From positions 124,001 through 188,000 of the forward strand of contig JAUIGE010000001.1 of assembly GCA_030430205.1 (NCBI GenBank): a DNA stretch of 64,000 bases. The letters run 5' to 3'. The notes under the pieces are model-generated. The model ran no database searches. It was not told where the DNA came from and was given only the letters and a program-made list of their open reading frames with translations. This DNA is from Bacteroidia bacterium (lineage in GTDB: Bacteria; Bacteroidota; Bacteroidia; J057). Below are positions 281 through 63,165 of this stretch, one piece after another (the first letter of the stretch is position 1; each line of letters begins with the position of its first letter). A program made the translations under genes and the position numbers.

Positions 281-868
281 ATGCAAATAACACAAATGAA
301 CGAATTCATCCGCGAAGAAATCGCATCCCATATAGCGCTGGCGCAGGAAGTATTGGAAAAAATGCAGCCAGAGATCGCGCTGGCTTGCGAAATGGCCGTG
401 GCGACCCTTCACTCCGGCAACAAGATCCTCTTGTTTGGAAATGGCGGCAGCGCCGCCGATGCGCAGCATATAGCTGCGGAGCTTTCGGGCCGCTTTCGGC
501 GTGAGCGGCCTGCCCTGCCCGCGATAGCGCTGACGACAGACACCTCTGCGCTGACTGCCATCGGCAATGACTATGGCTTTGAACAGATTTTTTCCCGCCA
601 GGTAGAAGCCCTGGCCCGGCCCGGTGATCTCTGCATTGGCATCTCTACTTCGGGCAATAGCCCGAACATCCTGGCAGCCATGAAGAAAGCCGATGAAATC
701 GGCTGCAGCAGGCTTGGCCTGAGTGGCCAGGCCGGCGGCCAACTCAAAGCCCAAAGCGAGCTTTGCCTCCGTATCCCCTCTGACAATACCGCCCGCATTC
801 AGGAAATGCATATCATGATCGGGCACCTCATCTGCGAAGCTGTGGAGAGAGGAGAGAGGAGAGAGTAG
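281..868 (+). CDS. gmhA: D-sedoheptulose-7-phosphate isomerase (phosphoheptose isomerase)
   Basis: Converts sedoheptulose 7-phosphate to D-glycero-D-manno-heptose 7-phosphate, the first step to ADP-heptose for the LPS core; cytosolic tetramer in the known family. The 195-residue product has the SIS-domain loop GNGGSAADAQH (53-63), the phosphate loop STSGNS (122-127) and EMHIMIGH (175-182). H63, E67, Q174 and H182 match the zinc ligands of characterised GmhA by position. An ATG at 296 (MNEFIREE) is an alternative start. The last seven residues (ERGERRE) and the TAG stop are made by a purine heptad repeat that begins inside the gene, so the C-terminal tail is repeat-derived. Divergent from the glycosyltransferase upstream. 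Confidence 0.93.
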   Translation: MQITQMNEFIREEIASHIALAQEVLEKMQPEIALACEMAVATLHSGNKILLFGNGGSAADAQHIAAELSGRFRRERPALPAIALTTDTSALTAIGNDYGFEQIFSRQVEALARPGDLCIGISTSGNSPNILAAMKKADEIGCSRLGLSGQAGGQLKAQSELCLRIPSDNTARIQEMHIMIGHLICEAVERGERRE

Positions 869-917
869 AGAGGAGAGAACAGAGAGGAGAGAGAGGAGAG
901 AGAGGAGAGAGTAGAGA
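843..917 (+). repeat. Class B purine heptad repeat at the gmhA 3' end
   Basis: Tandem heptads of the type AGGAGAG with variants AGTAGAG and AACAGAG. The repeat begins within the last codons of gmhA and provides its GAG-TAG end. The canonical unit contains no stop codon in any of six frames; the AGAGTAG variant introduces the TAG. It lies between gmhA and the convergent dehydrogenase gene. No class A partner is present here. Confidence 0.85.
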
Positions 918-927
918 GATTGGGCTT

Positions 928-4058: not shown

Positions 4059-6002
4059 GTGCTAAATCTTGAAAACATAGGAATCGAATTCAGTGGACGA
4101 TGGCTCCTACAGGAAGCAAGCTATCAGTTTACGCCAGGAGAGCGCATCGGCCTCATTGGCCGCAACGGTACGGGCAAGTCTACTTTGCTCAAAGTAATCT
4201 CCGGACAGATGCTCCCGACCGAAGGTCGGGTGAACAAATCTTCAGATATGAAGATTGCTTTTTTCAACCAGGACTTGCTCTCTTTTGAGACAGATGACAT
4301 CATCTTTGAAGTGGTCAGGCAAGCTTTTTTACCCCTGCTCAAGCTAAATGAAGAGGTAGACACACTCTTGCACCGGGTAGAGGCAGGCGAGACAGATCCC
4401 GCCATCTGGGATGATCTGGCCCAAAAACAAGCTGCTTTTGAGACGCGTGGCGGCAATAGGATAGATGCCATGGTGGGCGAAATGCTTTCGGGCCTGGGCT
4501 TTTCCAAAGAAGAGCAACACCAACCCTACCAGACTTTTTCCGGTGGCTGGCGCATGCGCGTTTTGCTCGCCAAAATGCTCCTTGAGGAGCCTGGCGTTTT
4601 GCTCCTGGATGAGCCTACCAACCACCTCGACCTTCCCTCCATCCAATGGCTGGAAAATTACCTCAAGAACTTTCGCGGGATCACCATCATCGTTTCTCAC
4701 GACCGCTTTTTCATAGACCGCATCGCCGACAGGATACTGGAAATCAGCCTGAAACAGCTCAATGAGTATGCTGGCAATTACTCCTATTATCTGGAGGAAA
4801 AAGCCATTCGCTACGAGCAGCAGCAGCGTTCTTACGAAAATCAGCAGAAATACATCGAGCAGCAGGAGCGCTTTATTACCCGCTTTAAGGCGAAGGCTAC
4901 CAAGGCGAAGCAGGCGCAGTCCAAGATGAAGCAGCTCGAAAAAATAGATCGAATTGAAGCTCCTGAAGAAGAGGGCTTTAAATTCAATCTTCGCTTCCAA
5001 ATGTCCCAAAAATCGGGCAAAGAAGTCATTCGCCTGAGGCATGTAAACAAGGCCTACGGCAATAAGCATATCCTGGCGGATAGCGAAGGCACCATCATGC
5101 GAGGCGATAAAATCGCCCTCATCGGTGCCAACGGCCTGGGCAAGTCCACTTTGCTCCGCATCGTGGCAGGCACAGAACCCCATGAAGGCACTTGTGAAGA
5201 AGGCCACAATGTCATTCCCGCATTTTTTGCACAGCACCAGCTGGAGTCACTGGACCTCAAATCCAATATTCTCGAAGAAATGGCGACTTCTGGTTCTGGA
5301 CATACCGAGCAGGAGCTTCGGGGCATTTTGGGTTGTTTTATGTTTTCAGGGGAAGATGTAGATAAAAAAATACAGGTGCTCTCAGGTGGCGAGCGCTCTC
5401 GCGTAGCGATGGCCAAGACGCTCATTTCTCATGCAAACTTCCTCCTGCTCGATGAGCCTACCAACCACCTCGACATTCCCAGTATTCAGGTCCTTATTCA
5501 GGCGCTGAATGCCTATGAAGGCACCTATATCATCGTTTCTCACGACCGCTGGTTTTTGCAGCAGGTAGCCAATAAAATTTGGTTTATTGAAGATAAAAAG
5601 CTGAAGGAATATCCCGGGACTTATGAGGAGTTTGAACTTTGGATGGAGAAGAGAGAGGAGAGAAGCGAGAAGAGAGATGCGGGAAGCGAGAAGCGGGAGG
5701 TGACACCTGAAGCGCCGGAGGCGAAAAGCCAAAAGCCAGAGCTTGATTATAAAGAGCGAAAGCAGCTACAGAATAGGATCAAGAAGCTGAAGCGGGAAGT
5801 CGAGCAGTTTGAGGAAAAAATAGAAAAGCTGGAAGCGGAAAAAGAAGCCGCTATCATGGAGCTCGCCAAGCCAGAAGTGGCTTCCGATTATAGCAAGCTG
5901 AGCGAAGCTCAGCAAGTGCTGGAAAAACTGGATGAACAAATCCTGAATTTCACTGCCCAGTGGGAAGAAGCGCTGATGGCGCTGGAGGAAGAGGAGGTTT
6001 AA
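4059..6002 (+). CDS. ABC-F family ATPase (Uup/YdiF-like ribosome-associated)
   Basis: 647 residues from a GTG start. Two nucleotide-binding domains: Walker [10 protein letters not shown] and GANGLGKST, signatures FSGGW and LSGGERSR, Walker [12 protein letters not shown] in both halves, joined by a helical P-site tRNA-interaction linker (roughly residues 235-300, rich in Q/E/K), and a C-terminal coiled coil of the Uup type (last ~85 residues). No membrane segment. Family members act on translating ribosomes. Between NBD2 and the coiled coil is a stretch near residues 528-560 with the heptad peptide [18 protein letters not shown], encoded by class B repeat DNA. A -7-like TATCTTCG lies directly before the start, so the leader is short or absent. 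Confidence 0.93.
5643..5700 (+). repeat. Class B purine heptad repeat inside the ABC-F reading frame
   Basis: Purine heptads (GAGAGAAGCGAGAAG type) within the coding sequence. Three 7-bp units make 21 bp, so the translated product repeats every seven residues ([21 protein letters not shown]). The insertion falls exactly in the flexible joint between NBD2 and the C-terminal coiled coil, where extra length should be tolerated. Confidence 0.8.
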
Positions 6003-6012: not shown

Positions 6013-6168
6013 ACAGTATGCAGTTTAAAGTATGCAGTATGCAACAATCACACTGCCAACTGCCAACTGCTTACTGCCAACTGCTTACTACCAACTGCTT
6101 ACTACCAACTGCATACTGCCAACTGCATACTGCCAACTGCTTACTGCCAACTGCTTACTGCCAACTAA
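6013..6168 (+). repeat. Class C heptad repeat forming an inverted element between convergent genes
   Basis: Left arm made of AGTATGC/AGTTTAA heptads (6016-6045), right arm of some 15 heptads of the ACTGCCA/ACTGCTT/ACTGCAT type (6050-6165). The arms are complementary (AGTATGC with GCATACT), so the transcript can fold into a hairpin. It fills the whole gap between the stops of the ABC-F gene (6002) and yicC (6170) and may serve as a bidirectional terminator or 3' stabiliser (inference). Confidence 0.8.
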
Positions 6169-6169
6169 G

Positions 6170-7045
6170 CTAGACTATATTCAATACCTGCTCCTTTATC
6201 TTATCCAACTCATCTTTCATATTTACCACAAAGCGCTGCATTTCAGCATTTTGTGCTTTTGATCCGATGGTATTGATCTCCCGGCCCATCTCCTGGGCGA
6301 TGAAATTCAATTTTTTGCCATTGCTCTCTGGCTCATTTTTCATCTGCTCAAAATAGGTCAAATGCTGGCGCAAGCGCACTATTTCCTCATTGATGTCCAG
6401 TTTTTCTATATAAAAAACGAGTTCCTGCTCAAAGCGATTGGGGTCAAAGTCAAGCTTGCCTTTCAGGTCTGAAAGGGCGCTCATCAGGCGCTCGCGAACC
6501 TGCTCAATGCGCGCGGGCGCTTGCGACTCTACCTCTTCCAGGTTGCTGCTGATAGCTGCCAGACGCAGGTCGAAGTCTGCTGCGAGGGCTTCGCCCTCAT
6601 GTCTTCGGCTCTCTGTGAGCTTTTTCGCCGCCGCCAAAGCTGCTTGCTGAATCAGCTCCCACTCTTCAGGATCCGGCTCCGCCGACTCTATCGGAATGAT
6701 TTCCGGCAAGCCCATCAAAAAGGGAAGATCCACTTCCTGCTCGATATGGAGCCGCTCCCGTGCGGCATTCAATTCTTTCAAATATGCCTGTGCCAGTACC
6801 TGATTGATGTTCAGCGAACGTTTCTCAGGGTTCATCACTTCCGCATTCAAAAACAAACTGACCTTCCCCCGCTGCAATTCTTTGGAAAGCAGCTGGCGTA
6901 TCTTGTGCTCGTACTGCATATACAGCCGTGGTACACGAAGAGACAGCTCGAAAAACTTGCTGTTCAGGGATTTAAGTTCAATGGAAATTTTATAATTAGC
7001 GGATTCAGCCGAGGCTGCGCCATAGCCAGTCATGGAAAGAATCAT
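6170..7045 (-). CDS. yicC: YicC/YloC family endoribonuclease-like protein
   Basis: 291 residues. The N-terminal signature MTGYG (residues 5-9), the [17 protein letters not shown] segment, and a C-terminal DUF1732-type end ([20 protein letters not shown], then [15 protein letters not shown]) identify the family. Characterised members are involved in RNA turnover in stationary phase. In between are long charged helices. Cytosolic. The gene is convergent with the ABC-F gene across a class C repeat and divergent from the acetyltransferase gene at 7130 (84 bp gap). Confidence 0.9.
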
Positions 7046-7651: not shown

Positions 7652-8221
7652 ATGAAGAATTCAACTTTTTTCCTTTTCCTCTTGAGCCTGCTTGCCTTCT
7701 CCGCCTGCGTTGACGATGGCCCGGATGTGGACCCTGAGTTCACCCTACTCCAGCACGATGACGCCAATCAGGATGCCCCTGAGCTACCGACAGGAACCTA
7801 TGAGGGCGGTGCCCGCTTCCTCGCCAGCCAGATGGCTGCCCTGAGTGGCGACAAACTCATCGAGGTACAATACTACCTCAAAGATCGTCCTTCCTCCGGA
7901 AGTATTCGCATCTACCAGGGCAGCGAAGGCGACAAGCCCAAAACCCTCGTTTACAACGAAAATGTAAGCATAGGCGAAGAGGAAAAATCCTGGAATACGC
8001 ATAGCCTGAAGACAGCACTTGTCCTGGATGGAAGTGATCTTTGGATCAATTACCGCTTTACTCAAGCCACCAACCAGCGGACGCTGGGCTGTGATATCGG
8101 CCCTGCCGTAGAGAATGGCGACTGGCTCTGGGACGCCAACGACGACCAGTGGCTTCCTTTGCGCCAACGCTCCACGATCAGCATCAACTGGAATGTCAGA
8201 GGTGTTGTAGAGCCTAAGTAG
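7652..8221 (+). CDS. Hypothetical lipoprotein
   Basis: 189 residues from ATG at 7652, chosen because it gives a lipoprotein signal peptide (MKNSTFFLFLLSLLAFSAC, Cys19) and because a TATCTTTG promoter-like -7 element lies at 7619-7626, 26 bases upstream. The mature part has ~165 residues with a beta-rich pattern (RFLASQMAALSGDKLIEVQYYL, GSIRIYQGSEGDKPKTLVY, ISINWNVRGVVEP) that looks like a jelly-roll or carbohydrate-binding-like fold; no family recognised with confidence. Downstream is a class A heptad repeat and a convergent gene. Confidence 0.7.
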   Translation: MKNSTFFLFLLSLLAFSACVDDGPDVDPEFTLLQHDDANQDAPELPTGTYEGGARFLASQMAALSGDKLIEVQYYLKDRPSSGSIRIYQGSEGDKPKTLVYNENVSIGEEEKSWNTHSLKTALVLDGSDLWINYRFTQATNQRTLGCDIGPAVENGDWLWDANDDQWLPLRQRSTISINWNVRGVVEPK

Positions 8222-8233
8222 GGGAGGAAGAAG

Positions 8234-8340
8234 TTTGGGGTTTTGGGTTTCGGGTTTCGGGTTTCGGGTTTCGGGTTTCGAGTTTTGGGTTTCGGGTTCC
8301 TATTCTTCAGTCTCGCTTCTCGCCTCTCCTCCCTACTCCC
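8234..8340 (-). repeat. Composite heptad element, class B then class A
   Basis: On the minus strand a class B purine stretch (8310-8340) begins at the stop of the minus-strand gene ending at 8333 (GAG-TAG), followed by a class A array of GAAACCC/CAAAACT heptads (8234-8300). Same gene-B-A order as at 15.4, 32.9, 35.0 and 63.1 kb. It also separates two convergent genes. Confidence 0.85.
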
Positions 8341-9131: not shown

Positions 9132-9950
9132 TCAATGCATCAGCTTGAATCGGAAAGGGATATTCACCCAAAATTTAATGGGTTTACCTCCTTGAATAGC
9201 AGGAGAAAATTTGAGCTTATGTATGTTATTCTCCACAGCCTCAGCAAGAATGGGGTGTATCTTTTTGACCATTTTATGCTTCCTGTAATTTCCATGCTCA
9301 TCTACCAGTACCCGAACCACGACCTGCCCTTCAATGTTGGCATCACGCGCAACATCTGGATAGCCAATCAGCAGTTGCACTTCGTCCATATTAAGCGGCT
9401 TTGGCTCTTCTGATACGAATACAAAATCATCTACATTGGGTTCTTCCTCTGCAATAACTGCCGGAGGACCATCACCATCGCCTTCGCTGGGAATAGAGTT
9501 GAAAATATCCGTTTCTTCTCCGTCTACTGATTTGGTAGAAATAATTGCTTTCACCGTATCGAGCATCCTGTTCTCTTCAATTTTTTCCTCTTCTACAATC
9601 TCATCCCTGGGTTTGGGTTCAGGAATCTTGAAAGCAATCTGCTTCAATTTGGGGGGCGGTGCTTTAGGTGGGGGGGGAGGGGGAGGGGCTTCGTTTTCAT
9701 CCACCGGAGGTGGAGGGGGTAAGTCGGCCAGGGTGATGCTTCCTGTTTCCTTGAGGTGATTTTGCTCCTCTCCTGCGCCACTCAGTGCGATTTGGGGTCC
9801 AAACATAACGGCCATCAGGAGGGCAATGGTTATCACTGTTGCAATCAACAAGTGTAACCCATACATCTTTCGCAATTGATAAGCTCCGTAGCTTCTCTCT
9901 CGATCCTCAAACACCATTTCCGTTAGGTCGGCTTTAATGATTTCTGACAT
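9132..9950 (-). CDS. tonB: Energy transducer TonB, copy 1
   Basis: 272 residues from ATG at 9948-9950 (MSEIIKADL). Cytoplasmic Bacteroidota-type extension FEDRERSYGAYQLRKMYG, one membrane segment (~33-55), a periplasmic proline-rich spacer (PPPPPVDENEAPPPPPPP) with EPKP repeats, and a C-terminal TonB domain: IGYPDVARDANIEGQVVVRV, VDEHGNYRKHKMVKKIHP, LKFSPAIQGGKPIKFWVNIP. TonB carries proton-motive energy from ExbB/ExbD to outer-membrane receptors. Third tandem paralogue after ExbB-ExbD-ExbD; each has its own hairpin terminator. Confidence 0.92.
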   Translation of the reverse strand: MSEIIKADLTEMVFEDRERSYGAYQLRKMYGLHLLIATVITIALLMAVMFGPQIALSGAGEEQNHLKETGSITLADLPPPPPVDENEAPPPPPPPKAPPPKLKQIAFKIPEPKPRDEIVEEEKIEENRMLDTVKAIISTKSVDGEETDIFNSIPSEGDGDGPPAVIAEEEPNVDDFVFVSEEPKPLNMDEVQLLIGYPDVARDANIEGQVVVRVLVDEHGNYRKHKMVKKIHPILAEAVENNIHKLKFSPAIQGGKPIKFWVNIPFRFKLMH

Positions 9951-10072
9951 AGTACTAAACAATTAGGTGGTTTATACTCCGGTCATGTTGCCTTTTTTTG
10001 ACCAAAGCTGTACGTATGTGAGAGGACAAAGACGAAATTCAGTAGAATTTATGCTTTTTTTTTACATAAACA

Positions 10073-10108
10073 AAAAGCACTCACTTCCTTGCAGAAGCGG
10101 GTGCTTTT
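10073..10108 (-). terminator. Hairpin terminator downstream of tonB copy 2
   Basis: Arms 10073-10087 and 10094-10108 (AAAAGCAC...GTGCTTTT) with six-base loop; on the minus strand it is followed by a T-rich run. The inner stem has a wobble and a mismatch, unlike the near-perfect copies at 9078 and 11031. Confidence 0.75.
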
Positions 10109-10121
10109 ATCTCTGAACATC

Positions 10122-10934
10122 TTATCGCATCAACTCGAATCTGAAAGGAATATTCACCCAAAATTTAATGGGTTTACTTCCTTGAATGGCAGGAGTAAAC
10201 TTGAGTTTATGCAAGTTTTTCTCCACAGCATCAGCCAGAATCGGGTGTATTTTTTTAATCATTTTATGCTTCCGGTAATTTCCTTGCTCATCTACAAGCA
10301 CGCGGACGACTACCATCCCTTCAATCCCTGCATCGCGGGCGATATCCGGATATCCTATGAGCTTCCGCACATCATCCATGTTCAGGGTTTTGGGTTCTTC
10401 GGAGACAAAGACAAAATCGTCAACTTTCGGATCCTCATCCTGAATTACAGCAGGAGGTCCGCTTCCTTCTCCGGGGATGGTGTTAAAAATATCTGTAGGG
10501 TCGCCTTCAACTGATTTGGTAGAAATAACCGCTTTTACCGTATCGAGCATATTGTTTTCTTCAATTCTTTCCTCTTTTTCTATCTCATCGACAGGCTTGG
10601 GATCAGGAATTTTGAAGGCAATCTCCTGCAACTGAATGGGGATTGGAGGTTTCGGTGGCGGCGGTGGCAGAGGCAGATCATCCTCCGTTAACGGAGGAGG
10701 CGGAAGATCAGCCAGGTCTATGATACCCGTATCCCGGATATTATCATGTTCATCGCCCTCGGAAGCGAAGGCGATTTGTGGTGCAAAGACAACGACCAGC
10801 AGAAGGGCAAGGGCCACAGTTGTTGCTATCAACAAGTGCAGGCTATACTTTTTCCGCAGGAAATAAGCTCCATAGCGACGCTCTCTGTCTTCAAACACCA
10901 TTTCGGTCAGGTCAGCTTTAATGAATTGAGCCAT
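10122..10934 (-). CDS. tonB: Energy transducer TonB, copy 2
   Basis: 270 residues (MAQFIKADLTEMVFEDRERR). Same architecture as its neighbours: cytoplasmic YGAYFLRKKY motif, one membrane segment, proline-rich spacer (shorter and with changed repeats, DLPPPPLTEDDLPLPPPPP), C-terminal TonB domain (IGYPDIARDAGIEGMVVVRV ... FWVNIPFRFELMR). It is the most divergent in the proline-rich part (PIPIQLQEIAFKIPDPKP instead of PPKLKQIAFKIPEPKP), suggesting some specialisation for span or receptor (inference). Flanks are also duplicated: both this gene and copy 1 have the upstream segment AATTAGGTGGTTTATAC. Confidence 0.92.
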   Translation of the reverse strand: MAQFIKADLTEMVFEDRERRYGAYFLRKKYSLHLLIATTVALALLLVVVFAPQIAFASEGDEHDNIRDTGIIDLADLPPPPLTEDDLPLPPPPPKPPIPIQLQEIAFKIPDPKPVDEIEKEERIEENNMLDTVKAVISTKSVEGDPTDIFNTIPGEGSGPPAVIQDEDPKVDDFVFVSEEPKTLNMDDVRKLIGYPDIARDAGIEGMVVVRVLVDEQGNYRKHKMIKKIHPILADAVEKNLHKLKFTPAIQGSKPIKFWVNIPFRFELMR

Positions 10935-11030
10935 TGGGTGAAAAAATTAGGTGGTTTATACCCATAAGAGAGTCAAAAAAGAATATTCCATAAATAAAAA
11001 ACTCTTTTTTCGCATAAATTTTATATAAAC

Positions 11031-11070
11031 GAAAAGCGCCCGCTTCCATAACAGAAGCGGGCGCTTTTTC
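11031..11070 (-). terminator. Hairpin terminator downstream of tonB copy 3
   Basis: Perfect stem of 16 pairs (11031-11046 with 11054-11069), loop CATAACA. Sequence nearly identical to the hairpin at 9078, showing that gene and terminator were duplicated as a unit. Confidence 0.82.
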
Positions 11071-11085
11071 CTGAGAACAAGTGTA

Positions 11086-11898
11086 TTAGTTCATAAGCTT
11101 GAAGCGGAAAGGTATGTTTACCCAAAATTTAATGGGCTTATTACCTTGGATAGCAGGAGAAAACTTGAGTTTATGTAAGTTTTTCTCCACCGCATCAGCG
11201 AGAATGGGGTGTACTTTTTTGATCATTTTGTGCTTCCGGTAATTCCCTTGTTCGTCCACCAATACCCGGACAACTACTTGTCCTTCGATACCAGCATCAC
11301 GGGCAATATCCGGATAACCGATGATCTTCCGTACATCATCCATATTCAGCGGTTGAGGCTCCTCAGAGACAAAAATAAAGTCGTCTACATTGGGTTCTTC
11401 TTCCGCAATAACTTCAGGAGGACCATCTCCTTCTCCAGGGATGGAGTTGAAAATATCCGTTAACTCCCCATCTACAGATTTTGTAGAGATGACCGCTTTC
11501 ACAGTATCGAGCATCTTGTTTTCTTCAATTTTTTCCTCTTCCTCAATCTCATCTTTGGGTTTCGGTTCAGGAATCTTGAAGGCAATCTGCTTCAATTTGG
11601 GGGGCGGTGGTTTGGGTGGTGGCGGAGGAGGTGGCGGTTCGTTTTCATCCACCGGAGGCGGTGGAGGCAAGTCAGCCAGGGTGATGGTACCAGTATCTTT
11701 GATCTTATCCTGGTCATCTCCTTCTCCACCCAGCGCGATTTGTGGTGCAAATACGACTACCATGAGAAGCGCCAGGGTAACGATTGTCCCTATCAAGAGG
11801 TGCAATCCATACTTTTTCCGGAGGAAATAAGCTCCATAGCGACGCTCGCGGTCTTCGAACACCATCTCGGTCAGGTCAGCTTTGATGATTTGAGCCAT
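11086..11898 (-). CDS. tonB: Energy transducer TonB, copy 3
   Basis: 270 residues from ATG at 11896-11898 (MAQIIKADL); an ATG four codons upstream is less likely because the other two copies start at the equivalent place. Same domains: YGAYFLRKKYG, membrane helix (~33-53), proline-rich spacer (PPPPPVDENEPPPPPPPP), TonB domain (IGYPDIARDAGIEGQVVVRV). It is first in transcription order, directly after exbD (103 bp gap), and probably the one most strongly coupled to the exb operon. Confidence 0.92.
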   Translation of the reverse strand: MAQIIKADLTEMVFEDRERRYGAYFLRKKYGLHLLIGTIVTLALLMVVVFAPQIALGGEGDDQDKIKDTGTITLADLPPPPPVDENEPPPPPPPPKPPPPKLKQIAFKIPEPKPKDEIEEEEKIEENKMLDTVKAVISTKSVDGELTDIFNSIPGEGDGPPEVIAEEEPNVDDFIFVSEEPQPLNMDDVRKIIGYPDIARDAGIEGQVVVRVLVDEQGNYRKHKMIKKVHPILADAVEKNLHKLKFSPAIQGNKPIKFWVNIPFRFKLMN

Positions 11899-12000
11899 AG
11901 CGTTAAACAATTAAACGAGAACTATACACAAAAAAACACAGGTCTATTTATTTTGATTTGCTGAGGTCGCAAGAATTCTTGCTTGCATCTGCAAATCCAT

Positions 12001-12609
12001 TTACTCTACCATTGGCGCACGGTTTTCAAAGTCCCATTTGCCAAGCAAAATCAGGCTGTCGCGGGAATTGAACACGTCAATAGCGTATTTTGGGGCACTC
12101 TGGATAGACATTTCATCCAGGCAATCTACCAGGTTTCTATATTTGGATTTCTTCTTGGCTTTGATCACAAAGATAGGATCCCAGCAACCTTCCGTTTCTT
12201 CCCCATATTTAGCTTTTTCATCATCACAACGTCTCGGATGACGATTCAAGTGCTCCCGAATAACTTCTGCCAATCCTGTTTCAGGATCAAAGGTTGTGTT
12301 CTTAACCTCAACATCTGTGATTCGGTGAAAATAATGAACGGTATCTTTTTCCCCGAGGACAATGGTGACTACTTTTTCTTCATCCACATCTGCCTTGAGG
12401 TCATCCTCTGTGAGTTGATCATCTTTAGGAGGCATGGTCAGTGCCATGACCGAAAAGTCCTGTATCACAGCAGTCAGTACGAAAAAGGTAAGAAGCAGAA
12501 AGGCAACGTCCACCATCGCTGTCATATCGATGCGGGTAGACTTCTTTTTGGTTTTACTACCGCCTTTTTTTCCGCGTCCTCCTCCTCCTCCAGAATCTAC
12601 ATCAGCCAT
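12001..12609 (-). CDS. exbD: Biopolymer transport protein ExbD/TolR, copy 2 in the operon
   Basis: 202 residues. A glycine/lysine-rich N-terminal tail (GGGGGRGKKGGSKTKKK) precedes the ExbD signature RIDMTAMVDVAFLLLTFF, with the proton-conducting aspartate in MVDVAF (about residue 33). The periplasmic part is ~145 residues and acidic. Works with ExbB as the stator that energises TonB. Two different ExbD genes follow one ExbB; hetero-assemblies are possible, as proposed for Bacteroidota ExbB/ExbD/ExbD sets. Confidence 0.93.
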   Translation of the reverse strand: MADVDSGGGGGRGKKGGSKTKKKSTRIDMTAMVDVAFLLLTFFVLTAVIQDFSVMALTMPPKDDQLTEDDLKADVDEEKVVTIVLGEKDTVHYFHRITDVEVKNTTFDPETGLAEVIREHLNRHPRRCDDEKAKYGEETEGCWDPIFVIKAKKKSKYRNLVDCLDEMSIQSAPKYAIDVFNSRDSLILLGKWDFENRAPMVE

Positions 12610-12690
12610 TTTGATTATTTTTTAACGAAAGTTTTACTTAAAGAGAGATAAAAAAGAAAATTCCATAAAAAGAATGAATACTTTTTACCC

Positions 12691-13329: not shown

Positions 13330-13476
13330 GATGAATGAATTAAGATTGAATGAACAAATAAAAAGTGGCTTTACCTGATGTGCCTTTTAGGGAAGAGTAA
13401 AGGGGAGAACAGATTCCATAAAATTTATCTCCCTTTTTTATTTTTCCTCACGGCCATGGCAGGTAAAGGGTAAACC

Positions 13477-14630: not shown

Positions 14631-15560
14631 TTATATCATTTTGAGAAACTTCACTTCCTTATCTGTCAGAAGCCTCCATTTCCCTCTTGGAAGATGTTTT
14701 TTACTCAGATGAGCAATCATTACCCGATCCAAAGATAGTATTTTATATCCCAAAGCTTCAAACATTCGCCGTACAATTCTGTTTTTCCCGCTTTGGATTT
14801 GGATACCTACCTCATCGGTGGTTTTTCCTTCTACAAAATCTATTTTGTCTGCCTGGGCCAGTCCATCTTCCAATTCGACCCCTACCAGCAAGCGATTCAA
14901 ATCCTCTTCTGGCACAACTTTGTCAAGCCGCACATGATAGAGCTTTCTGATTTTGTTTGCTGGATTTGTGAGTTTTGCGGTTAATTCTCCATCATTTGTC
15001 AGCAATATGAGTCCGGTTGTATTGCGGTCGAGTCGCCCCACCGGAAAAACCCGTTCCTGGGTCGCTTCCTTGATGAGGTCCATGATGGTCTTCCTCTCCA
15101 ATGGATCGTCTGTAGTAGTGAGTGTATTCTTGGGTTTATTGAGTAAAATGTAGACAAACTGCTGAGATTGAAGGATTTTGCCCCCGTATTCTACCTTATC
15201 CTGGCCCACCGTGACCTGCCTGCCCATTTCGGTCACTACTTCTCCATTTATCCTGATTTTCCCTTTTTTGATCAGTTCATCGGCTTCTCTTCGGGAGCAT
15301 ACACCAGCCTGAGCGATGAAGCGATTCAAGCGAAGAGAGGAAGGAGGTTTCGGGTTTTGAGTTTCGGGTTTCGGGTTTTGAGTTTCGGGTTTCGGGTTTT
15401 GAGTCCTGTCCTGAGTCCTCGAAGGATCGGGTTTGCGCTTATCGCCCTTCTTCCCTCCCGAATCTCGCTTCTCGCCTCTCGCCTCTCGCTTCTTCTTCCC
15501 TCTCGCCTCCGGCTTCTCATTGGGATCCCAAAATTGATATGTTTTTTTCTTTTTACCCAT
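14631..15560 (-). CDS. rluB: 16S/23S rRNA pseudouridine synthase, RluB/RsuA family, with repeat-derived N-terminal extension
   Basis: 309 residues from ATG at 15558-15560. From about residue 76 it is an ordinary RsuA/RluB protein: S4 domain (LNRFIAQAGVCSRREADELI), and catalytic motif GRLDRNTTGLILLTNDGE with the active-site Asp; end RRMFEALGYKILSLDRV. Residues ~13-75 are low complexity: EKREARG-type heptads (class B DNA) followed by TQNPKPE heptads (class A DNA), in the order B then A. The extension is basic and disordered and might help RNA binding, but it most simply reflects repeat insertion. Last gene of the dapD-scpB-rluB run; RluB next to ScpB is a common arrangement. Confidence 0.9.
   Translation of the reverse strand: MGKKKKTYQFWDPNEKPEARGKKKREARGEKRDSGGKKGDKRKPDPSRTQDRTQNPKPETQNPKPETQNPKPPSSLRLNRFIAQAGVCSRREADELIKKGKIRINGEVVTEMGRQVTVGQDKVEYGGKILQSQQFVYILLNKPKNTLTTTDDPLERKTIMDLIKEATQERVFPVGRLDRNTTGLILLTNDGELTAKLTNPANKIRKLYHVRLDKVVPEEDLNRLLVGVELEDGLAQADKIDFVEGKTTDEVGIQIQSGKNRIVRRMFEALGYKILSLDRVMIAHLSKKHLPRGKWRLLTDKEVKFLKMI
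15345..15518 (-). repeat. Composite heptad element (B then A) inside the rluB reading frame
   Basis: Minus-strand order: class B purine heptads (15449-15518), a short non-repeat stretch, class A CGAAACC/CAAAACT heptads (15345-15403). Translated as 7-residue repeats. The copy number keeps the frame open, and the reverse strand is also open, which creates spurious overlapping frames. Confidence 0.85.
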
Positions 15561-16309: not shown

Positions 16310-16330
16310 GGGAGTTCATTTATTTTGTTT

Positions 16331-16397
16331 CTCATTTCTCTCATCTCTGCTCTCGCTTCTCTGCTCTCGCTTCTCTGTTCTCGCTTCCCGCCTCTCC
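16331..16397 (-). repeat. Class B heptad repeat at the dapD 3' end
   Basis: On the minus strand it starts directly after the dapD TGA stop (16398-16400) and consists of about nine heptads alternating AGCGAGA and GCAGAGA. Fills the space between dapD and scpB. Confidence 0.82.
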
Positions 16398-17204
16398 TCA
16401 CACACTCACACTATGCTCTCTCAATGCGTCATTGAGCGAAGTTTTCTTATTCGTTGAGGCTTTTCGCTTGCCGATGATGAGTGCGCAGGGGACATGATAG
16501 GTTCCTGCCGGAAATTTTTTGGGGTAGCTTCCGGGAATCACCACGCTTTGCGGGGGCACATAGCCCCGATGCGTCACAGGCTCATCGCCTGTCACATCTA
16601 TGATATGTGAGCTGGCGGTCAGCACCACATTGGCGCCGAGCACGGCTTCGCGTCCTACGCGAACGCCCTCCACGACGATACATCGGCTACCGATGAAGCA
16701 GTCATCTTCGATGATCACGGGCGCAGCCTGCACAGGCTCCAACACACCGCCGATCCCTACTCCTCCACTGAGGTGGACGTTTTTGCCGATCTGGGCACAG
16801 GAGCCTACGGTCGCCCAGGTGTCTACCATGCTGCCGCTGTCTACATAAGCGCCGATGTTTACATAGGATGGCATCATGATGACGCCGGAGGCCAAAAAGG
16901 CGCCGTAGCGCGCAGTAGCGGGTGGGACCACCCGCACCCCCTGACCGACGTAGTCGGTTTTGAGAGCCATTTTGTCATGATATTCAAAAGGAGACAACTC
17001 AATGGTCTCCATTTTCTGGATAGGAAAATACAGGATGACAGCTTTTTTCACCCAATCATTTACCTGCCAACCTTCATCTGTCGGCTCTGCACAGCGCAGC
17101 TGCCCCTTGTCCAATTGTTCGATCACAGCGCGAATCGCGTCCAGGGTTTCTGCTTTTTCCAAAAGGGAACGATCTTCCCAGGCTGCTTCTATGATGTTTT
17201 TCAT
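16398..17204 (-). CDS. dapD: 2,3,4,5-tetrahydropyridine-2,6-dicarboxylate N-succinyltransferase
   Basis: 268 residues. Succinyl-CoA-dependent step of the lysine/diaminopimelate pathway. N-terminal helical domain (IIEAAWEDRSLLEKAETLDA), then a left-handed beta helix of hexapeptides (GVIMMPSYVNIGAYVDSGSM, VGSCAQIGKNVHLSGGVGIG, IEDDCFIGSRCIVVEGVRVG), ending CALIIGKRKASTNKKTSLND. Matches DapD length and motifs. lysA, the last step of the same pathway, is at 42.8 kb. The region just before the start is a class A heptad array, so its promoter must lie within or beyond that array; the 3' end runs into class B repeats. Confidence 0.95.
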   Translation of the reverse strand: MKNIIEAAWEDRSLLEKAETLDAIRAVIEQLDKGQLRCAEPTDEGWQVNDWVKKAVILYFPIQKMETIELSPFEYHDKMALKTDYVGQGVRVVPPATARYGAFLASGVIMMPSYVNIGAYVDSGSMVDTWATVGSCAQIGKNVHLSGGVGIGGVLEPVQAAPVIIEDDCFIGSRCIVVEGVRVGREAVLGANVVLTASSHIIDVTGDEPVTHRGYVPPQSVVIPGSYPKKFPAGTYHVPCALIIGKRKASTNKKTSLNDALREHSVSV

Positions 17205-17209
17205 TTTAG

Positions 17210-17350
17210 TTTCGAGTTTTGGGTTTCGGGTTTCGAGTTTTGGGTTTCGGGTTTCGAGTTTTGGGTTTCGGGTTTCGGGTTTCGGGTTTCGGGTTTCGGG
17301 TTTCGGGTAGGAGTTCTTGGAACATGAAACTCAAAACCCGAAACTTCCTC
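17210..17350 (+). repeat. Class A heptad array with short inverted arm between divergent genes
   Basis: About 14 heptads (GGGTTTC with interspersed AGTTTTG) at 17210-17309, then a short spacer and an opposite-strand copy (GAAACTCAAAACCCGAAAC, 17326-17344). The two arms can pair. Unlike the others, this element sits between two 5' ends (dapD minus, histidine kinase plus). Confidence 0.85.
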
Positions 17351-18650: not shown

Positions 18651-19064
18651 ATGCCTCGAATACTCGCCATAGACTACGGTGCCAAACGCACCGGCCTTGC
18701 CTGGACAGATCCCTTGCAGATCATCGCAACGGGCATCGGTAGCTTCGCTACCTCCGACATCGAAGCGAAGCTTCGCGAACTCATCGCCGCCGAGGCGGTC
18801 GAGCTGATCGTGCTGGGATATCCCAGCCGGGCCGATGGCTCCGATACACATGCCACTCCCCTCGTCCGCACATTCAAACAATCACTTGAAAAGTGGTTCT
18901 CCGCCATTCCCGTAGAATATTGGGATGAAAGAGGCAGCTCCCGGGATGCCATGCAAGGCATGATACATGCCGGCCTACCCAGGAAAAAACGCGCAGACAA
19001 ACACCTCATCAACCAGGTCGCTGCGACAATCATCCTTCAGGATTATATGGAGAGTAGAGAGTAG
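18651..19064 (+). CDS. ruvX: RuvX/YqgF family Holliday junction resolvase-like / pre-16S rRNA nuclease
   Basis: 137 residues. RNase H-like fold motifs: AIDYGAKRTGLAWTD (first catalytic Asp), VELIVLGYPSRADG, VEYWDERGSSRDAM, and RADKHLINQVAATIILQDYM with the last acidic residue. Family members process pre-16S rRNA 5' ends. The final residues MESRE and the GAG-TAG stop are made from class B repeat DNA. Four bases downstream of the histidine kinase gene. Confidence 0.92.
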   Translation: MPRILAIDYGAKRTGLAWTDPLQIIATGIGSFATSDIEAKLRELIAAEAVELIVLGYPSRADGSDTHATPLVRTFKQSLEKWFSAIPVEYWDERGSSRDAMQGMIHAGLPRKKRADKHLINQVAATIILQDYMESRE

Positions 19065-19240
19065 AGAGTAGAGATCAGAGATCAGAGAGTAGAGATAAGA
19101 GAGTAGAGAAGCGAGAATAGAGCTGTGATTCACCTCACTTCTCTGCTCTCTACTCTCGCTTCTCTGATCTCTACTCTCGCTTCTCTGATCTCTACTCTCA
19201 CTTCTCTGATCTCTACTCTCGCTTCTCTGATCTCATTTCT
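19047..19240 (+). repeat. Long class B inverted repeat downstream of ruvX
   Basis: Purine arm 19047-19113 (AGAGAGT/AGAGATC/AGAGAAG heptads), loop around 19114-19134, pyrimidine arm 19135-19240 (TCTCTGA/TCTCTAC/TCTCGCT heptads). The transcript can form a long heptad-registered hairpin. It begins inside ruvX and ends 12 bases before the promoter-like element of def, so it insulates the two genes. Spacing rules out a CRISPR array: the unit is 7 bp with no spacers. Confidence 0.85.
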
Positions 19241-31681: not shown

Positions 31682-33184
31682 TTACTTACGCAAGATAGCA
31701 ATACTTCGATCGTCATGATGGCCTACGGCCCAAAAATCCAACCACTGGAGGAGCGCTTCCGGCGCACCTTCACCCGATTTTACCGCTTCGGGAAGTTCGT
31801 CCCAAAGGCTGTCCCAGTTTTCCTGCTTCAATAAGCCGGCATCCGTTTCAAAACGGGGATCGCTGACGCCATCTGTCATGAGGATGCAGGCGGTGAAGTC
31901 TTTCACCAGATGGAAATAGACGCGATCTGCGATCGCGCCATCCTGCCAGACTTCTCTGGAAGTCAGAAAGCGGGTTTGCCCGGCAAACTCGCCGCCATCG
32001 GGCGTGCCCATGATCAGAGGAGCTTCTGCTCCTGCTGTATAAATGCCTACGGCTCCATCGCCTACCCAAAAAGAGGCGAAGAAATAAGCTGCCTTTACTT
32101 TTTTACAAATCGTCAAAAGCAGGGTGGTAGAAAAATCGCGGGTTTCGGCTTCGATTTTTTCCGCTTCTGCCTTGATGGCTTCTACTGCGGCCCAGGCCGC
32201 ATTTTCTACCAGGGCTGTATAGCAGGCAGCGCGCAGACTTGTATTTTCGGCTATATCCTCTTCTCCTATCTCGCTCAGGACTTCGTCCAGACTGCCCGCA
32301 GCCAAATGTGCCTTCAATCCCTCCAGCGCATGCACGCATGCAAGCTCGGAACCCCTACGGGCGTATGGGGCAGAGCCAGCACCATCCGCCACTGCCAGAA
32401 TGGCCCAGCCGCTTTCAGCAAGAAAATCAAGTGCAATCGCATCATCTCTAAAGCCACCCGCATGCGCGTGAGATCGCCCCCGGCGGCTGGCGGCCTGCAG
32501 GCGAAAACCACCCTGTTCCAGGTAGAGATGATCCGTATGGGAAATAGGATAAAGTGAATCAGGGTCGGGCTCGTTATTTTGCCAAAGAGATTTGGGGTCG
32601 GGATTGATGATCAGGGAAATTTCCTTAAACTTTTCCTCTCCTTCCTCTTCTGTCCGGTAATAGAGGCCCAGCAATTGGTTGCCGGCGGCATCAGATGGCG
32701 GCGTACCCGCCAGTATGCCCGTCTCCAGGTCAAATTGAAGTCCATATTTTTCGTAGCCCGCCAGGCGAAGAGAATAAAGCTCGTAGGACTCTTTCAGGCT
32801 TGCCAAATCCAACTGGTAGTGGTAATCAACTCCCACCATGGCATTTTTTTTCAATCGGATTTTTTGCGTTTCAAAGGGATGTTCTTCCATTTCTTCTTCC
32901 TCAAAGGGTTCCGGGTTTGGAGTTTCGGGTTCCGGGTTTGGTCTCTCTTCTCGCTTCTCGCCTCTCGCCTCTCCCTCTCCCTCTCTATCGGTATAGTCGA
33001 TGAAGTGGGTAATGACATGCTGCATGTCTGTACTGATCTGGCTCAGTAGCCTGATATTATCCGGCGAATCCTGCAGAAAAGCCTTTAGCTGCTGTTCAAT
33101 TACTTCCTCTTGTACCTTTTTCGGTGCCCTGAGCTTGAGTATATCCTTTAAGGTGCGAATTTCTTCTTGTAGAGATTGATCCAT
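31682..33184 (-). CDS. PP2C-family Ser/Thr phosphatase of the Ter triad with N-terminal Ig-like domain
   Basis: 500 residues. N-terminal helical part (1-65), a repeat-derived segment (~68-98: [20 protein letters not shown] type, then acidic), a putative-Ig-like domain (LETGILAGTPPSDAAGN resembles the He_PIG pattern), then PP2C: AVADGAGSAPYARRGSELA (metal Asp), TDGVSDPRF, and HHDDRSIAIL. It should reverse the phosphorylation made by the kinase 9 bp downstream. 6 bp after TerY copy 3. The repeat segment again has the order B then A. Confidence 0.87.
   Translation of the reverse strand: MDQSLQEEIRTLKDILKLRAPKKVQEEVIEQQLKAFLQDSPDNIRLLSQISTDMQHVITHFIDYTDREGEGEARGEKREERPNPEPETPNPEPFEEEEMEEHPFETQKIRLKKNAMVGVDYHYQLDLASLKESYELYSLRLAGYEKYGLQFDLETGILAGTPPSDAAGNQLLGLYYRTEEEGEEKFKEISLIINPDPKSLWQNNEPDPDSLYPISHTDHLYLEQGGFRLQAASRRGRSHAHAGGFRDDAIALDFLAESGWAILAVADGAGSAPYARRGSELACVHALEGLKAHLAAGSLDEVLSEIGEEDIAENTSLRAACYTALVENAAWAAVEAIKAEAEKIEAETRDFSTTLLLTICKKVKAAYFFASFWVGDGAVGIYTAGAEAPLIMGTPDGGEFAGQTRFLTSREVWQDGAIADRVYFHLVKDFTACILMTDGVSDPRFETDAGLLKQENWDSLWDELPEAVKSGEGAPEALLQWLDFWAVGHHDDRSIAILRK
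32905..32987 (-). repeat. Composite heptad element (B then A) inside the PP2C gene
   Basis: Minus strand: purine heptads (32942-32987) then GGGTTTC-complement heptads (32905-32941). Translates to [19 protein letters not shown]. Located in the linker between the helical N-terminus and the Ig-like domain. Confidence 0.82.
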
Positions 33185-33190
33185 GCGCGC

Positions 33191-34900: not shown

Positions 34901-34915
34901 GGGGGGATGTTTTGT

Positions 34916-35046
34916 GTTTCGGGTTTCGGGTTTCGAGTTTTGGGTTTCGGGTTTCGAGTTTTGGGTTTCGGGTTTCTATCTCTACTCTCTCGTCTCTACT
35001 CTCTCATCTCTACTCTCTCGTCTCTACTCTCTCGTCTCTACCTTCT
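34916..35046 (-). repeat. Composite heptad element (B then A) at the 3' end of TerY copy 1
   Basis: Minus strand: class B purine heptads (34977-35046; AGAGACG/AGAGAGT) that include the last codons and the GAG-TAG stop of the gene at 35010, then class A heptads (34916-34976). Lies between two paralogous terY genes. Confidence 0.85.
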
Positions 35047-35705
35047 ACTCTACCCAATTCCGAGGGTATCTTGGGCAATGCATCTAAATCATTTACAGCT
35101 TCTTCGATCTGTACACTTGCACTAATGGAAGTGGAGACCCATTTGAAAAATGCCTGAAACTGTTTGGCTTCGGGCAAAAATATTTCAATCACATGGGGGG
35201 TGATCTTCTTCAAGCTGCGCTTGCTGGCCTGTAGGCCGATGGCACAGCCTACGATCAGGCCCCAATCTCTTTTTTGGAATGCTTCCAGCCCTTTCTGAAA
35301 GTACATATCGGCAAAGCCTCTTTTCTCTTCGGGATCCCAAAGGTCGTTGGGGCCTCCATCTGTCATGATGAAGACGAGCGGCTTCCAGTCACCCTTTTGG
35401 GTGCTGCTGCTCTTGCTCACTTCCCTGTCGGCGCTCAGCGCCGTAAGCTCCAGGGCTTTGCCCATCGCAGTCTGACCAGAGGCCCGAAACTCGGGCATCT
35501 GGAAACTGACAAGGTCTGTTAAAGGAACGATCTGCCTGGCTTCGGAGGCAAATGTGATGATACTGAGCCACACGGTCTCCAGGGCATAAGGATCTCTGCG
35601 AAGCGTGCTTACCAGTACTTCAACTCCTTCCTGCAAAGAAGCGATAGGCTCTCCTGACATGGAGCCAGAAGTATCCAATACCAGGTATATGGGCAGCTTT
35701 CGCAT
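35010..35705 (-). CDS. terY: vWA-domain protein TerY, copy 1
   Basis: 231 residues. MIDAS motif DTSGSMSGEPI, GQTAMGKAL, FIMTDGGPND. Ends with a repeat-made tail (GRVEGRDERVETRE) and GAG-TAG stop from class B DNA. First of three terY genes; follows the last terD by 6 bp. Confidence 0.86.
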   Translation of the reverse strand: MRKLPIYLVLDTSGSMSGEPIASLQEGVEVLVSTLRRDPYALETVWLSIITFASEARQIVPLTDLVSFQMPEFRASGQTAMGKALELTALSADREVSKSSSTQKGDWKPLVFIMTDGGPNDLWDPEEKRGFADMYFQKGLEAFQKRDWGLIVGCAIGLQASKRSLKKITPHVIEIFLPEAKQFQAFFKWVSTSISASVQIEEAVNDLDALPKIPSELGRVEGRDERVETRE

Positions 35706-35711
35706 GCATTT

Positions 35712-44038: not shown

Positions 44039-44109
44039 TTGATTGAGATTATAAAATACAAAATTGCCACGAAAGCATAATGCTTTCATCGCGTGCTATA
44101 AGGGAAAGA

Positions 44110-44193
44110 AATTTTTAGTTTTTAGTTTTCAGTTAGCAGTTGACAGTGTTGTCTTTCACTTCCTGCCCACTGCCTACTGCCTACTGCCCACTA
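44110..44193 (-). repeat. Class C heptad inverted repeat after purS
   Basis: On the minus strand, starting three bases after the purS stop: heptads GGGCAGT/AGGCAGT, a spacer, then ACTGTCA/ACTGCTA/ACTGAAA/ACTAAAA heptads. The halves are complementary and form a hairpin between purS and lysA. Confidence 0.78.
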
Positions 44194-44195
44194 CC

Positions 44196-44441
44196 TCAGT
44201 TGAGTTCGAACTCAAACTTTTCGATGATGGTATTGGCGAGCAGTTTGGTACAAGCTTCCTTTACCTTGTCCTCGGCTGCCTGTTTATCCTTGGCTTCCAC
44301 TTCAACTTCTATGCGTTTGCCAATGCGCACCTGCCCGATATCATCGAGTCCCAGGTTGTGCAGGCCTAATAGGGTCGCTTTTCCTTGTGGGTCAAGGATT
44401 TCGTCCCGTGGCATGATATGGATGGTAGCCTTGTACTTCAT
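44196..44441 (-). CDS. purS: Phosphoribosylformylglycinamidine synthase subunit PurS
   Basis: 81 residues. MPRDEILDPQGKATLLGLHN and QVRIGKRIEVEVEA are PurS signatures; small dimeric subunit that bridges PurL and PurQ in purine synthesis. purL and purQ are not in the window. Small but typical in length. Followed by a class C hairpin and lysA. Confidence 0.93.
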   Translation of the reverse strand: MKYKATIHIMPRDEILDPQGKATLLGLHNLGLDDIGQVRIGKRIEVEVEAKDKQAAEDKVKEACTKLLANTIIEKFEFELN

Positions 44442-62230: not shown

Positions 62231-63055
62231 TTACCCTATCAATGACAAATAGAAATAGATAAAAGGGAGAGAAATATAGGTCCCATCAAAGCGATCAAGT
62301 ATGCCGCCATGCCCCGGCAAAATAGAGCCTGAGTCTTTCAACGCAAGACTTCTTTTAAACATAGACTCTACCAGGTCCCCCAGTTGGCTAAATACAGCGA
62401 TAATGCCCCCCACAATGATCCAATTGAAGGCTATGCCTTCACTGGCAAAATCTGTGAACTCAAAAGCCAAAGCCAGACCGATGCAGAGCAAGGCACCACC
62501 GATGCTCCCTTCCCAGGTTTTCTTGGGACTGATACGGGGATAAAGTGGATGTTTGCCTATCGCTTTTCCCACAAAATAAGCACCCACATCCAGGCCCCAG
62601 GTAAGTAGCAGGATTCCCAAAGGAATCCGGTAGTCATAGCTTTCTTCAGGAAAACTAAGGGAAAAAAGCAGCAAAAGAGGCAAGTAGCAATACAACAATC
62701 CGGTGACCATCGTCCCAATGCTTCGAAGGGGTTGTTTTTCTTTTACATGAAACAAAACTATGATGCTGAGCAAAGGCAGGACAAGTAAAAGGGATTTCCA
62801 TATTAACAACTCTTTTCCCGCAGAATATTCTGTCAAATAAATCCCAAGATATGCAGCCCAAAGCAGGCCTGTCATAAGCAAAAGGCTTCTGCTGTATATT
62901 TTTTCCACTTCGTTTAAGCGGAAAAACTCAACCAGCCCCAACAAAGACACCAACGCACAAAAGAGCATGAGGCCATAAGGTGAATACACAATGGCTGCTA
63001 TGGCTGCTGTGCCGGCTATGACGCCTGTTAATATTCTTTGTAAAAGGTTGTTCAT
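62231..63055 (-). CDS. cdsA: Phosphatidate cytidylyltransferase
   Basis: 274 residues, about eight membrane helices. The CdsA signature is complete at the C-terminus: SMFKRSLALKDSGSILPGHG followed by GILDRFDGTY. It makes CDP-diacylglycerol, used by PssA (encoded at 44.5 kb). Upstream, between it and the CPBP protease gene, is a heptad element. Confidence 0.95.
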   Translation of the reverse strand: MNNLLQRILTGVIAGTAAIAAIVYSPYGLMLFCALVSLLGLVEFFRLNEVEKIYSRSLLLMTGLLWAAYLGIYLTEYSAGKELLIWKSLLLVLPLLSIIVLFHVKEKQPLRSIGTMVTGLLYCYLPLLLLFSLSFPEESYDYRIPLGILLLTWGLDVGAYFVGKAIGKHPLYPRISPKKTWEGSIGGALLCIGLALAFEFTDFASEGIAFNWIIVGGIIAVFSQLGDLVESMFKRSLALKDSGSILPGHGGILDRFDGTYISLPFIYFYLSLIG

Positions 63056-63060
63056 TTTTT

Positions 63061-63165
63061 GTTTCGGGTTTCGGGTTTCGGGTTTCGGGTTCTCCCCTAT
63101 CTCTCATCTTTGGTCTCGCTTCCCGCTTCTCGCTTCTCGACTCCCGCCTCTCGCTTCCCACCTCT
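63061..63165 (-). repeat. Composite heptad element (B then A) at the 3' end of the CPBP gene
   Basis: Minus strand: class B purine heptads (63092-63165) covering the last ~24 codons of the protease gene and its AGA-TAG end, then class A heptads (63061-63091) up to the cdsA start. Confidence 0.85.

What the first reader, a model, noticed from the sequence alone, without database searches (positions are those of the whole stretch)
5643..5700. Heptads invade coding regions as 7-residue repeats
Because three heptads make seven codons, the ABC-F, RluB-type and PP2C proteins contain peptides with a 7-residue period (EKREERS; TQNPKPE; GEKREER). The canonical units GGGTTTC, AGGAGAG, AGCGAGA and ACTGCCA have no stop in any of the six frames, so an array can be inserted in any frame if the copy number is right. 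All three insertions fall in linkers or termini. This looks like a sequence selected, or filtered, for harmlessness when inserted in genes.
Basis: partly seen in the sequence, partly recalled or inferred. Interest (0 to 1): 0.65.

Follow-up and report, generated by a model that had tools for sequence, protein, structure and literature searches.

The report
Seven-base repeats hanging off genes
Stretches of seven-base repeats in this bacterium's genome, a few of them inside genes, mostly point the same way out from the neighbouring gene, as if copied onto broken DNA ends that were then rejoined; the peptides they add to proteins look like a tolerated side effect.

Summary
The arrays are real. 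The ABC-F, RluB-like and PP2C genes carry heptad DNA of the same vocabulary as arrays elsewhere in the genome, giving 7-residue peptide periods in linkers or termini. "Selected for harmlessness" is not supported: half of all heptamers are stop-free in six frames, while only 30 of 162 arms outside genes are (13 of 20 inside). None of the 20 in-gene arms is a multiple of 21 bp long.

The larger finding is polarity. All 47 close two-arm islands (two species; 11 mix word families) read G-rich arm, then C-rich arm. G-rich strands tend to run 5'->3' away from the flanking gene. Family-A arms mostly begin at one unit phase and end at many; variation sits at fixed unit positions; arms co-occur across a gap about five times more than expected. 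Six of six close pairs from four other Bacteroidota genera agree, and published Xanthomonas arrays show the same layout. Best model: templated addition of heptads to 3' ends of broken DNA, then joining. This is inferred; no enzyme was found.

The parts
5643..5700 (+). Purine-family (B) heptad arm inside the ABC-F gene 4059-6002, residues 529-546, in a linker before the ABC_tran_CTD stretch (576-637); peptide [19 protein letters not shown]
15447..15517 (-). B arm in the N-terminal extension of the RluB/RluF-like pseudouridine synthase (14631-15560, -); first arm in the sense strand
15345..15409 (-). C-rich arm of family A (sense AAACCCG), RTQNPKPETQNPKPETQNPKP, second arm of the same in-gene island; convergent order as in the other close pairs
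32900..32978 (-). Two-arm island inside the PP2C gene (31682-33184, -): B arm then C-rich A arm in the sense strand; [25 protein letters not shown]. The arm caller found the B arm only; the second was read by eye and tested
838..920 (+). B arm overlapping the 3' end of the gene 281-868 (SIS/GmhA-like by eye, ...VERGERRE stop)
6048..6169 (-). Family C arm (ACTGCCA on top strand), between ABC-F and gene 6170-7045 (-; YicC-like by eye), abutting the latter
8229..8340 (.). Family A arm 7 bp after the stop of gene 7652-8221, then a reversed purine arm: a two-arm island
16329..16396 (-). B arm in the gap 16310-16397; the syntenic gap in G001 is 102 bp without an array, 88 bp here with one
17204..17315 (+). 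Family A arm, 13 recognised units, abutting the start of gene 16398-17204 (-; DapD-like by eye)
19044..19240 (.). B arm (19044-19111) then, by TRF only, its reverse (19134-19240; not called by my arm caller), between a gene ending at 19064 and one from 19286 (RuvX-like and deformylase-like by eye)
34905..35047 (.). Two-arm island A then reversed B; overlaps the 3' end of gene 35010-35705 (-; TerY-like VWA protein by eye)
44107..44198 (.). Two-arm island of the family C type
63051..63154 (.). A arm then reversed B arm; the second arm encodes the C-terminus of gene 63097-63921 (-)

Best explanation
The coding heptads are a minority of a genome-wide population of heptad arms. Shown: each arm has an end where its G-rich strand starts, usually within a few bases of a start or stop codon, and from there that strand usually runs away from the gene; two arms close together always converge in the sample; the 5' end of family-A arms mostly has one unit phase and the 3' end does not; variation sits at fixed unit positions. 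Inferred: a break between (sometimes inside) genes loses some sequence, a telomerase-like or otherwise templated activity adds heptads to the 3' end of one or both sides, and the ends are joined. Repeated rounds would erode spacer DNA until the next coding base matters, which would place arms at gene ends. Inside genes only breaks in dispensable linkers or termini that leave an open frame survive; they replace and sometimes lengthen the linker. Later slippage adjusts copy number.
For: Polarity: arms at most 120 bp apart are '+-' in 41 of 41 pairs (G000, 1.657 Mb) and 6 of 6 (G001, 596 kb), none '-+', '++' or '--'; beyond 300 bp no such rule in G000 (3 v 3 at 301-1000 bp, 4 v 8 at 1001-3000 bp); 11 pairs mix families A and B, so hairpin formation cannot be the reason for those. 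The caller is symmetric: reversed sequence gives 41 '-+'. Single arms: 86 of 112 have the 5' side nearer a gene, median 2 bp against 47 bp, p=1.1e-8. Two-arm gaps 34, length-stratified expectation 7.3, maximum of 2000 permutations 15. Start phase of 82 family-A arms: 55 at unit position 3 (GTT), 15 at position 1, 12 elsewhere; end phases 8-18 per informative position. Fixed-position variation in 460 A units (units within 2 mismatches of canonical words): position 3 100%, position 5 99.8%, position 1 98.7% constant, against 72% at position 2 and 68% at position 7. Lead-in between start codon and A arm is 45% G (28 cases), control 22%. Other genera: 6 of 6 close pairs '+-', from four genera, among 24 loci displayed. 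In Xanthomonas 70 and 75 convergent pairs, arrays nearer the 5' neighbouring ORF, and a unit with one free position, GGGNATC (PMC4692102: abstract, section 13, passages). In-gene islands in RluB and PP2C keep the order although no start or stop codon lies there.
Against: No enzyme or template RNA was identified. Reverse transcriptases are not specific to the array-bearing genus: 8 of 13 family genomes have one over the cut-off. The two of G000 over the cut-off match a retron type XIII RT and an RT weakly like group II and generic RT models; DRT10 is not among the 25 best rows printed, and whether the library holds it was not checked. 26 of 112 single arms do not have the 5' side nearer, and 29 of 63 3' edges next to stop codons are also within 20 bp. 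Arms sit too close to gene ends for random breaks without an added erosion ratchet. Family-A variants recur at lags of 2 and 3 units (z 2.1 and 2.9), so slippage or unequal exchange contributes. If arms were scattered over all non-coding bases about 30 close pairs would be expected anyway, so the number of pairs is weaker evidence than their order. Start codons come from my own gene caller. Some G001 stretches were chosen because they held heptad matches. In Nostoc few pairs were found, and 83% of Xcc arrays recur in the same context in Xac (PMC4692102, passages), so formation may be old and rare. 13 TAACTGA sets of BOGUAY overlap an upstream stop codon in 'forward' orientation (PMC4679880), which fits only if they hang from the downstream start.
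Confidence: 0.42

Rival explanations
1. Ordinary heptanucleotide simple-sequence repeats: chance short duplications near gene ends expand by polymerase slippage or unequal crossing-over; selection removes those that harm genes.
For: Higher-order 14- and 21-bp units inside arrays; recurrence of variants at lags 2 and 3 (z 2.1, 2.9); heptamer abundance was linked to polymerase slippage in work cited by both papers read.
Against: Predicts no convergence rule (47 of 47), no shared vocabulary with fixed-position variation across dozens of loci, and no fixed phase at one end only.
Confidence: 0.22
2. Functional elements under selection, for example G-quadruplexes, terminators or translation-control leaders, kept in one orientation relative to genes.
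For: Orientation is mostly C-rich sense before starts and G-rich sense after stops; MacGregor suggested translational control for TAACTGA and Rehm reported G4 formation in vitro (abstracts).
Against: Four word families share the rule; mixed pairs cannot form hairpins; two-arm islands inside ORFs (RluB, PP2C) keep it too; words differ between the two species of the genus (GGGTTTC against AGGTTCT and GGGTTTT). Rehm et al. could not identify a role in gene regulation (section 16).
Confidence: 0.17
3. A mobile or recombining repeat: arrays are copied to new gene ends as DNA by gene conversion or transposition from existing arrays.
For: Shared vocabulary across loci and the same words in distant families of the phylum (GGGTTTC x3 in 8 of 395 genomes, TTATCCA x3 in 14 of 395, own included).
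Against: No shared flanking element was noticed by eye in the 82 junctions printed; target duplications and shared variant strings were not tested. In the 37 close pairs with both families assigned, A and B mix (11, expected 11.1) while C and D never pair with A or B (about 12 expected), which does not look like copying of whole islands.
Confidence: 0.1
4. One reading: a unit selected or filtered to be harmless when inserted in genes.
For: Canonical units are stop-free; in-gene arms are more often open in six frames (13 of 20) than the rest (30 of 162).
Against: Stop-free units are expected for half of all heptamers; most arms outside genes carry stops; the enrichment inside genes is what purifying selection gives.
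Confidence: 0.05

Closest known systems
GGGAATC / GGGGA(C/T)T heptameric arrays of Xanthomonas and Nostoc (Rehm et al. 2015, PMC4692102; abstract, sections 13 and 16 and passages read)
   Same: Heptad unit with one free position (GGGNATC), mostly intergenic, dispersed, close to the 5' neighbouring ORF on the G-rich strand, convergent pairs in Xanthomonas, rare inside ORFs, variable copy number
   Different: Other words; here several word families coexist and mix within pairs; I saw no start-phase analysis or break-healing model in the parts read
TAACTGA direct repeats of Beggiatoaceae, Cyanobacteria and some Bacteroidetes (MacGregor 2015, PMC4679880; abstract, sections 12 and 15 and passages read)
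   Different: One word, interpreted as a possible translational control site
Tandem repeats of Borg elements (PMC9879509; abstract start and passages read)
   Same: Tandem repeats inside ORFs making often disordered peptide repeats
   Different: Borg in-ORF units are divisible by three; here the unit is 7 and only the array as a whole keeps frame
Telomerase and DRT10 (PMC12632851, preprint; abstract and discussion read)
   Same: What the model would work like: templated tandem-repeat addition. Convergent telomere-fusion sequences and position-specific misincorporation by Paramecium telomerase are recalled, not looked up
   Different: DRT10 primes from its own protein; no such enzyme was recognised here

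Membership tests
Bacterial heptanucleotide repeat arrays (Xanthomonas/Nostoc type) | 7-nt unit in tandem, dispersed, mainly outside genes | tested here: met
   20% of array bases overlap called genes
Bacterial heptanucleotide repeat arrays (Xanthomonas/Nostoc type) | Convergent pairs (Xanthomonas) and G-rich strand starting at the nearer ORF | tested here: met
   published counterpart
Bacterial heptanucleotide repeat arrays (Xanthomonas/Nostoc type) | Unit GGGNATC or GGGGAYT | tested here: not met
   words GGGTTTC, GAGAGNA, NNGCAGT, ATGGANA
Telomerase-made repeats | G-rich strand extends 5'->3' toward the end or junction | tested here: met
   (defining feature recalled)
Telomerase-made repeats | A telomerase-like RT and template RNA | tested here: inconclusive
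   RTs present, none recognised as that kind; no RNA template was sought
Borg-type in-ORF tandem repeats | Unit length divisible by three | tested here: not met
   period 7
Phase-variation simple sequence repeats | Copy number varies between strains and switches a gene | not testable with these tools
   no strain of the same species was at hand; the same-genus genome is 66% identical in ABC-F

The most novel reading that the evidence does not exclude
These bacteria possess an RNA- or protein-templated 3'-end repeat-adding activity that caps broken chromosome ends with heptads before rejoining. Hundreds of gene ends would then carry scars like internal telomere fusions, and linkers of conserved proteins such as IspG are built partly from that scar DNA. 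The words drift between species as telomere repeats do.
Probability: 0.27. Interest if true: 0.92.

Novelty: new variant of a known kind. Interest (0 to 1): 0.6.

Why it matters
Heptad arrays have been noted in cyanobacteria, Xanthomonas, Beggiatoaceae and Bacteroidetes, and the papers read leave their role and origin open. A strict strand rule that holds across word families and several genera turns the question from 'what do they regulate' into 'what writes them from a 3' end', which can be tested. It also gives a source of new linker sequence in conserved proteins.

Tried and rejected
Selection for harmless units: rejected by the stop statistics. Multiples of 21 bp: none of 20 in-gene arms. 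Pure insertion: rejected for ABC-F, kept in part for IspG, the acyl-CoA dehydrogenase and PP2C. Hairpin or terminator selection: fails on the 11 mixed-family pairs. Genus-specific reverse transcriptase: not found. Gradient of variants along family-A arms: none obvious. Empty-site test with G001: 31 syntenic neighbour pairs, 4 with an island, gap minus G001 gap -14, +13, +100 and +362 bp; too few to separate insertion from replacement. The single genome-contig scan gave no named close relative (best 58% identity). Literature: no break-healing model turned up in searches, which cover only the open library.

Full report
What is there. The window lies in an unnamed 7.24-Mb genome (G000), Bacteroidota judging by its relatives. 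Gene names below without a call number are by eye. Lag analysis finds period 7 and its multiples and little else: 71 lag-7 runs per Mb in 857 kb of G000, 56 in 196 kb of the same-genus G001, none in 200 kb of three other genera of the family. A stricter caller gives 72 arrays in the 857 kb, 18 in the 196 kb, none in the 200 kb and none in a shuffled 393 kb. The coding arrays share the genome's heptad vocabulary and exceed all 5000 synonymous recodings and all 5000 codon permutations on that measure in ABC-F, both RluB arms and PP2C taken whole. Taken singly, the PP2C B arm was matched by 1 recoding and 8 permutations, the PP2C A arm by 1 recoding; on lag-7 identity, 12 recodings matched RluB arm a and 114 the PP2C A arm.

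Inside genes. In the 1.657-Mb sample 20 arms lie inside called genes by the looser margin and 19 by the stricter one. Some near the N-terminus are probably start-codon miscalls. Convincing internal cases are ABC-F, RluB-like, PP2C, IspG, an acyl-CoA dehydrogenase-SCP2 fusion, a glycosyltransferase, a T9SS-tailed protein, a 1047-aa protein without Pfam hit, and a C-terminal one in a pyridine-nucleotide oxidoreductase. In IspG the arm (297-324) starts at the end of the main GcpE stretch (23-301); in the fusion protein it (401-415) falls between the dehydrogenase domain (to 377) and SCP2 (from 424); in ABC-F (529-546) before the C-terminal domain (576-637); in RluB before S4 (77-120); in PP2C before the phosphatase domain (235-483). 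In RluB the arms follow an N-terminal FW motif that 6 of 7 comparable orthologue extensions share, so they are probably inside the true reading frame.

Insertion or replacement. RluB: extension 77 aa against 57 in G001 and 53-106 in seven comparable orthologues; four others have truncated or quite different N-termini. IspG: own span longer by 10-18 aa in 11 of 11 full-length orthologues, arm 27 aa (G011 partial, left out). Acyl-CoA dehydrogenase: longer by 11-17 aa in 4 of 5 full-length matches, by 1 in the fifth, arm 14 aa. PP2C: about +30 aa by eye against one alignable orthologue at 35% identity. The pattern is replacement with variable net gain.

Harmlessness. 50.4% of all heptamers are stop-free in six frames. 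Among arms outside genes 30 of 162 are six-frame open, inside 13 of 20. The filter is on place, not on word.

Polarity. Labelling arms by G-C skew only, without reference to word, close pairs (up to 120 bp) are G-rich then C-rich in 41 of 41 cases in G000 and 6 of 6 in G001; G001 stretches were partly chosen for heptad matches. By family in G000: 18 AA, 6 AB, 5 BA, 4 CC, 2 BB, 2 DD; 4 G000 pairs and all 6 G001 pairs had an arm of unassigned family. At 301-1000 and 1001-3000 bp the rule is gone in G000. Reversed sequence gives 41 of the opposite kind. Single arms have their 5' (G-strand) side nearer the gene in 86 of 112; within 20 bp of a stop lie 59 of 64 5' edges and 29 of 63 3' edges, of a start 30 of 50 and 9 of 50. 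Gaps with both arms: 34, expectation 7.3, maximum 15 in 2000 permutations; the smaller number than 41 reflects assignment to gaps by arm midpoint. A cruder estimate, treating arms as scattered over all non-coding bases, expected about 30 close pairs of any orientation, so the number of pairs alone is weaker evidence than their order.

Phase and spelling. Of 82 family-A arms 55 start at unit position 3 and 15 at position 1, while end phases are spread. Families B and C also show preferred starts, but their ends are not uniform either, so this argument rests on family A. In 460 A units positions 1, 3, 4 and 5 are at least 98.7% constant; positions 2 and 7 vary in 28% and 32%, position 6 in 8%. 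The lead-in between a start codon and an A arm is 45% G (28 cases) against 22% in controls, after stops 37% against 21% (17 cases). In G001 the dominant words are AGGTTCT and GGGTTTT rather than GGGTTTC, with the same GTT core and start (read by eye).

Elsewhere. GGGTTTC x3 occurs in 8 of 395 phylum genomes: this one and seven others in five families. TTATCCA x3 occurs in 14 of 395: this one and 13 others, all of one family, f42. Of 24 loci from those genomes that I displayed, six hold a close pair, all G-rich first, from four genera. Rehm et al. report convergent pairs and nearness to the 5' ORF in Xanthomonas, few pairs in Nostoc. MacGregor reports, in Flexibacter litoralis, 12 of 14 TAACTGA sets 'forward' before a start and one after a stop in reverse, which fits if AGTTATC is taken as the outward strand; the 13 BOGUAY sets that overlap an upstream stop in forward orientation fit only if they hang from the downstream start. 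That reading is mine.

Mechanism. Convergent arms with G-rich strands pointing inward are what 3'-end addition on both sides of a break followed by joining would leave, as in telomere fusions (recalled). Direction is supported by fixed start and spread end phases, templating by fixed-position variation, a paired event by co-occurrence. What is missing is the enzyme, the template and any observed event. The clustering at gene ends needs an extra assumption, repeated erosion up to coding sequence. I therefore hold the layout as shown and the mechanism as the leading of several explanations.

Noticed in passing
G000:C8:125267-127300 (L200:5267-7300): The ispG gene (one match in this genome) carries an 81-bp heptad arm (NVEREAGGGRREQRGESREQRAESKGAR) just after the main GcpE stretch.
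   Followed up: partly
G000 two-arm islands, 1.657 Mb sample: Families A and B pair with each other as often as expected (11 against 11.1), while C and D were found paired only with themselves or with unassigned arms, as if made by separate sources.
   Followed up: partly
G001 (L154-L163, L214-L233): The sister species uses shifted words (AGGTTCT, GGGTTTT, ATGGTCA) with a similar core, start and polarity.
   Followed up: partly
L277 (G403), about 30-1914: Several C-rich heptad arms are followed by a recurring stretch with gcagggatgg and ggtagcgcg, like a larger composite repeat.
   Followed up: no
window 9132-14403: Three tandem TonB-like paralogues beside two ExbD-like genes and an ExbB/MotA-like gene (named by eye).
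   Followed up: no
window 31682-38724: A PP2C phosphatase gene near a TerY-like VWA gene, recalling tellurite/phosphorylation-type clusters (by eye, apart from the PP2C match).
   Followed up: no
G000:C60:187999-188544 (L262) and G001:C35 (L259): A reverse transcriptase shared by the two species (61% identity) sits beside proteins that look FGE-sulfatase-like by eye, as in a diversity-generating retroelement; G000:C13 has an RT matching the retron type XIII model.
   Followed up: partly
window 15630-15659: A perfect 15-bp duplication in the acidic C-terminal tail of the ScpB-like gene, not a heptad.
   Followed up: no
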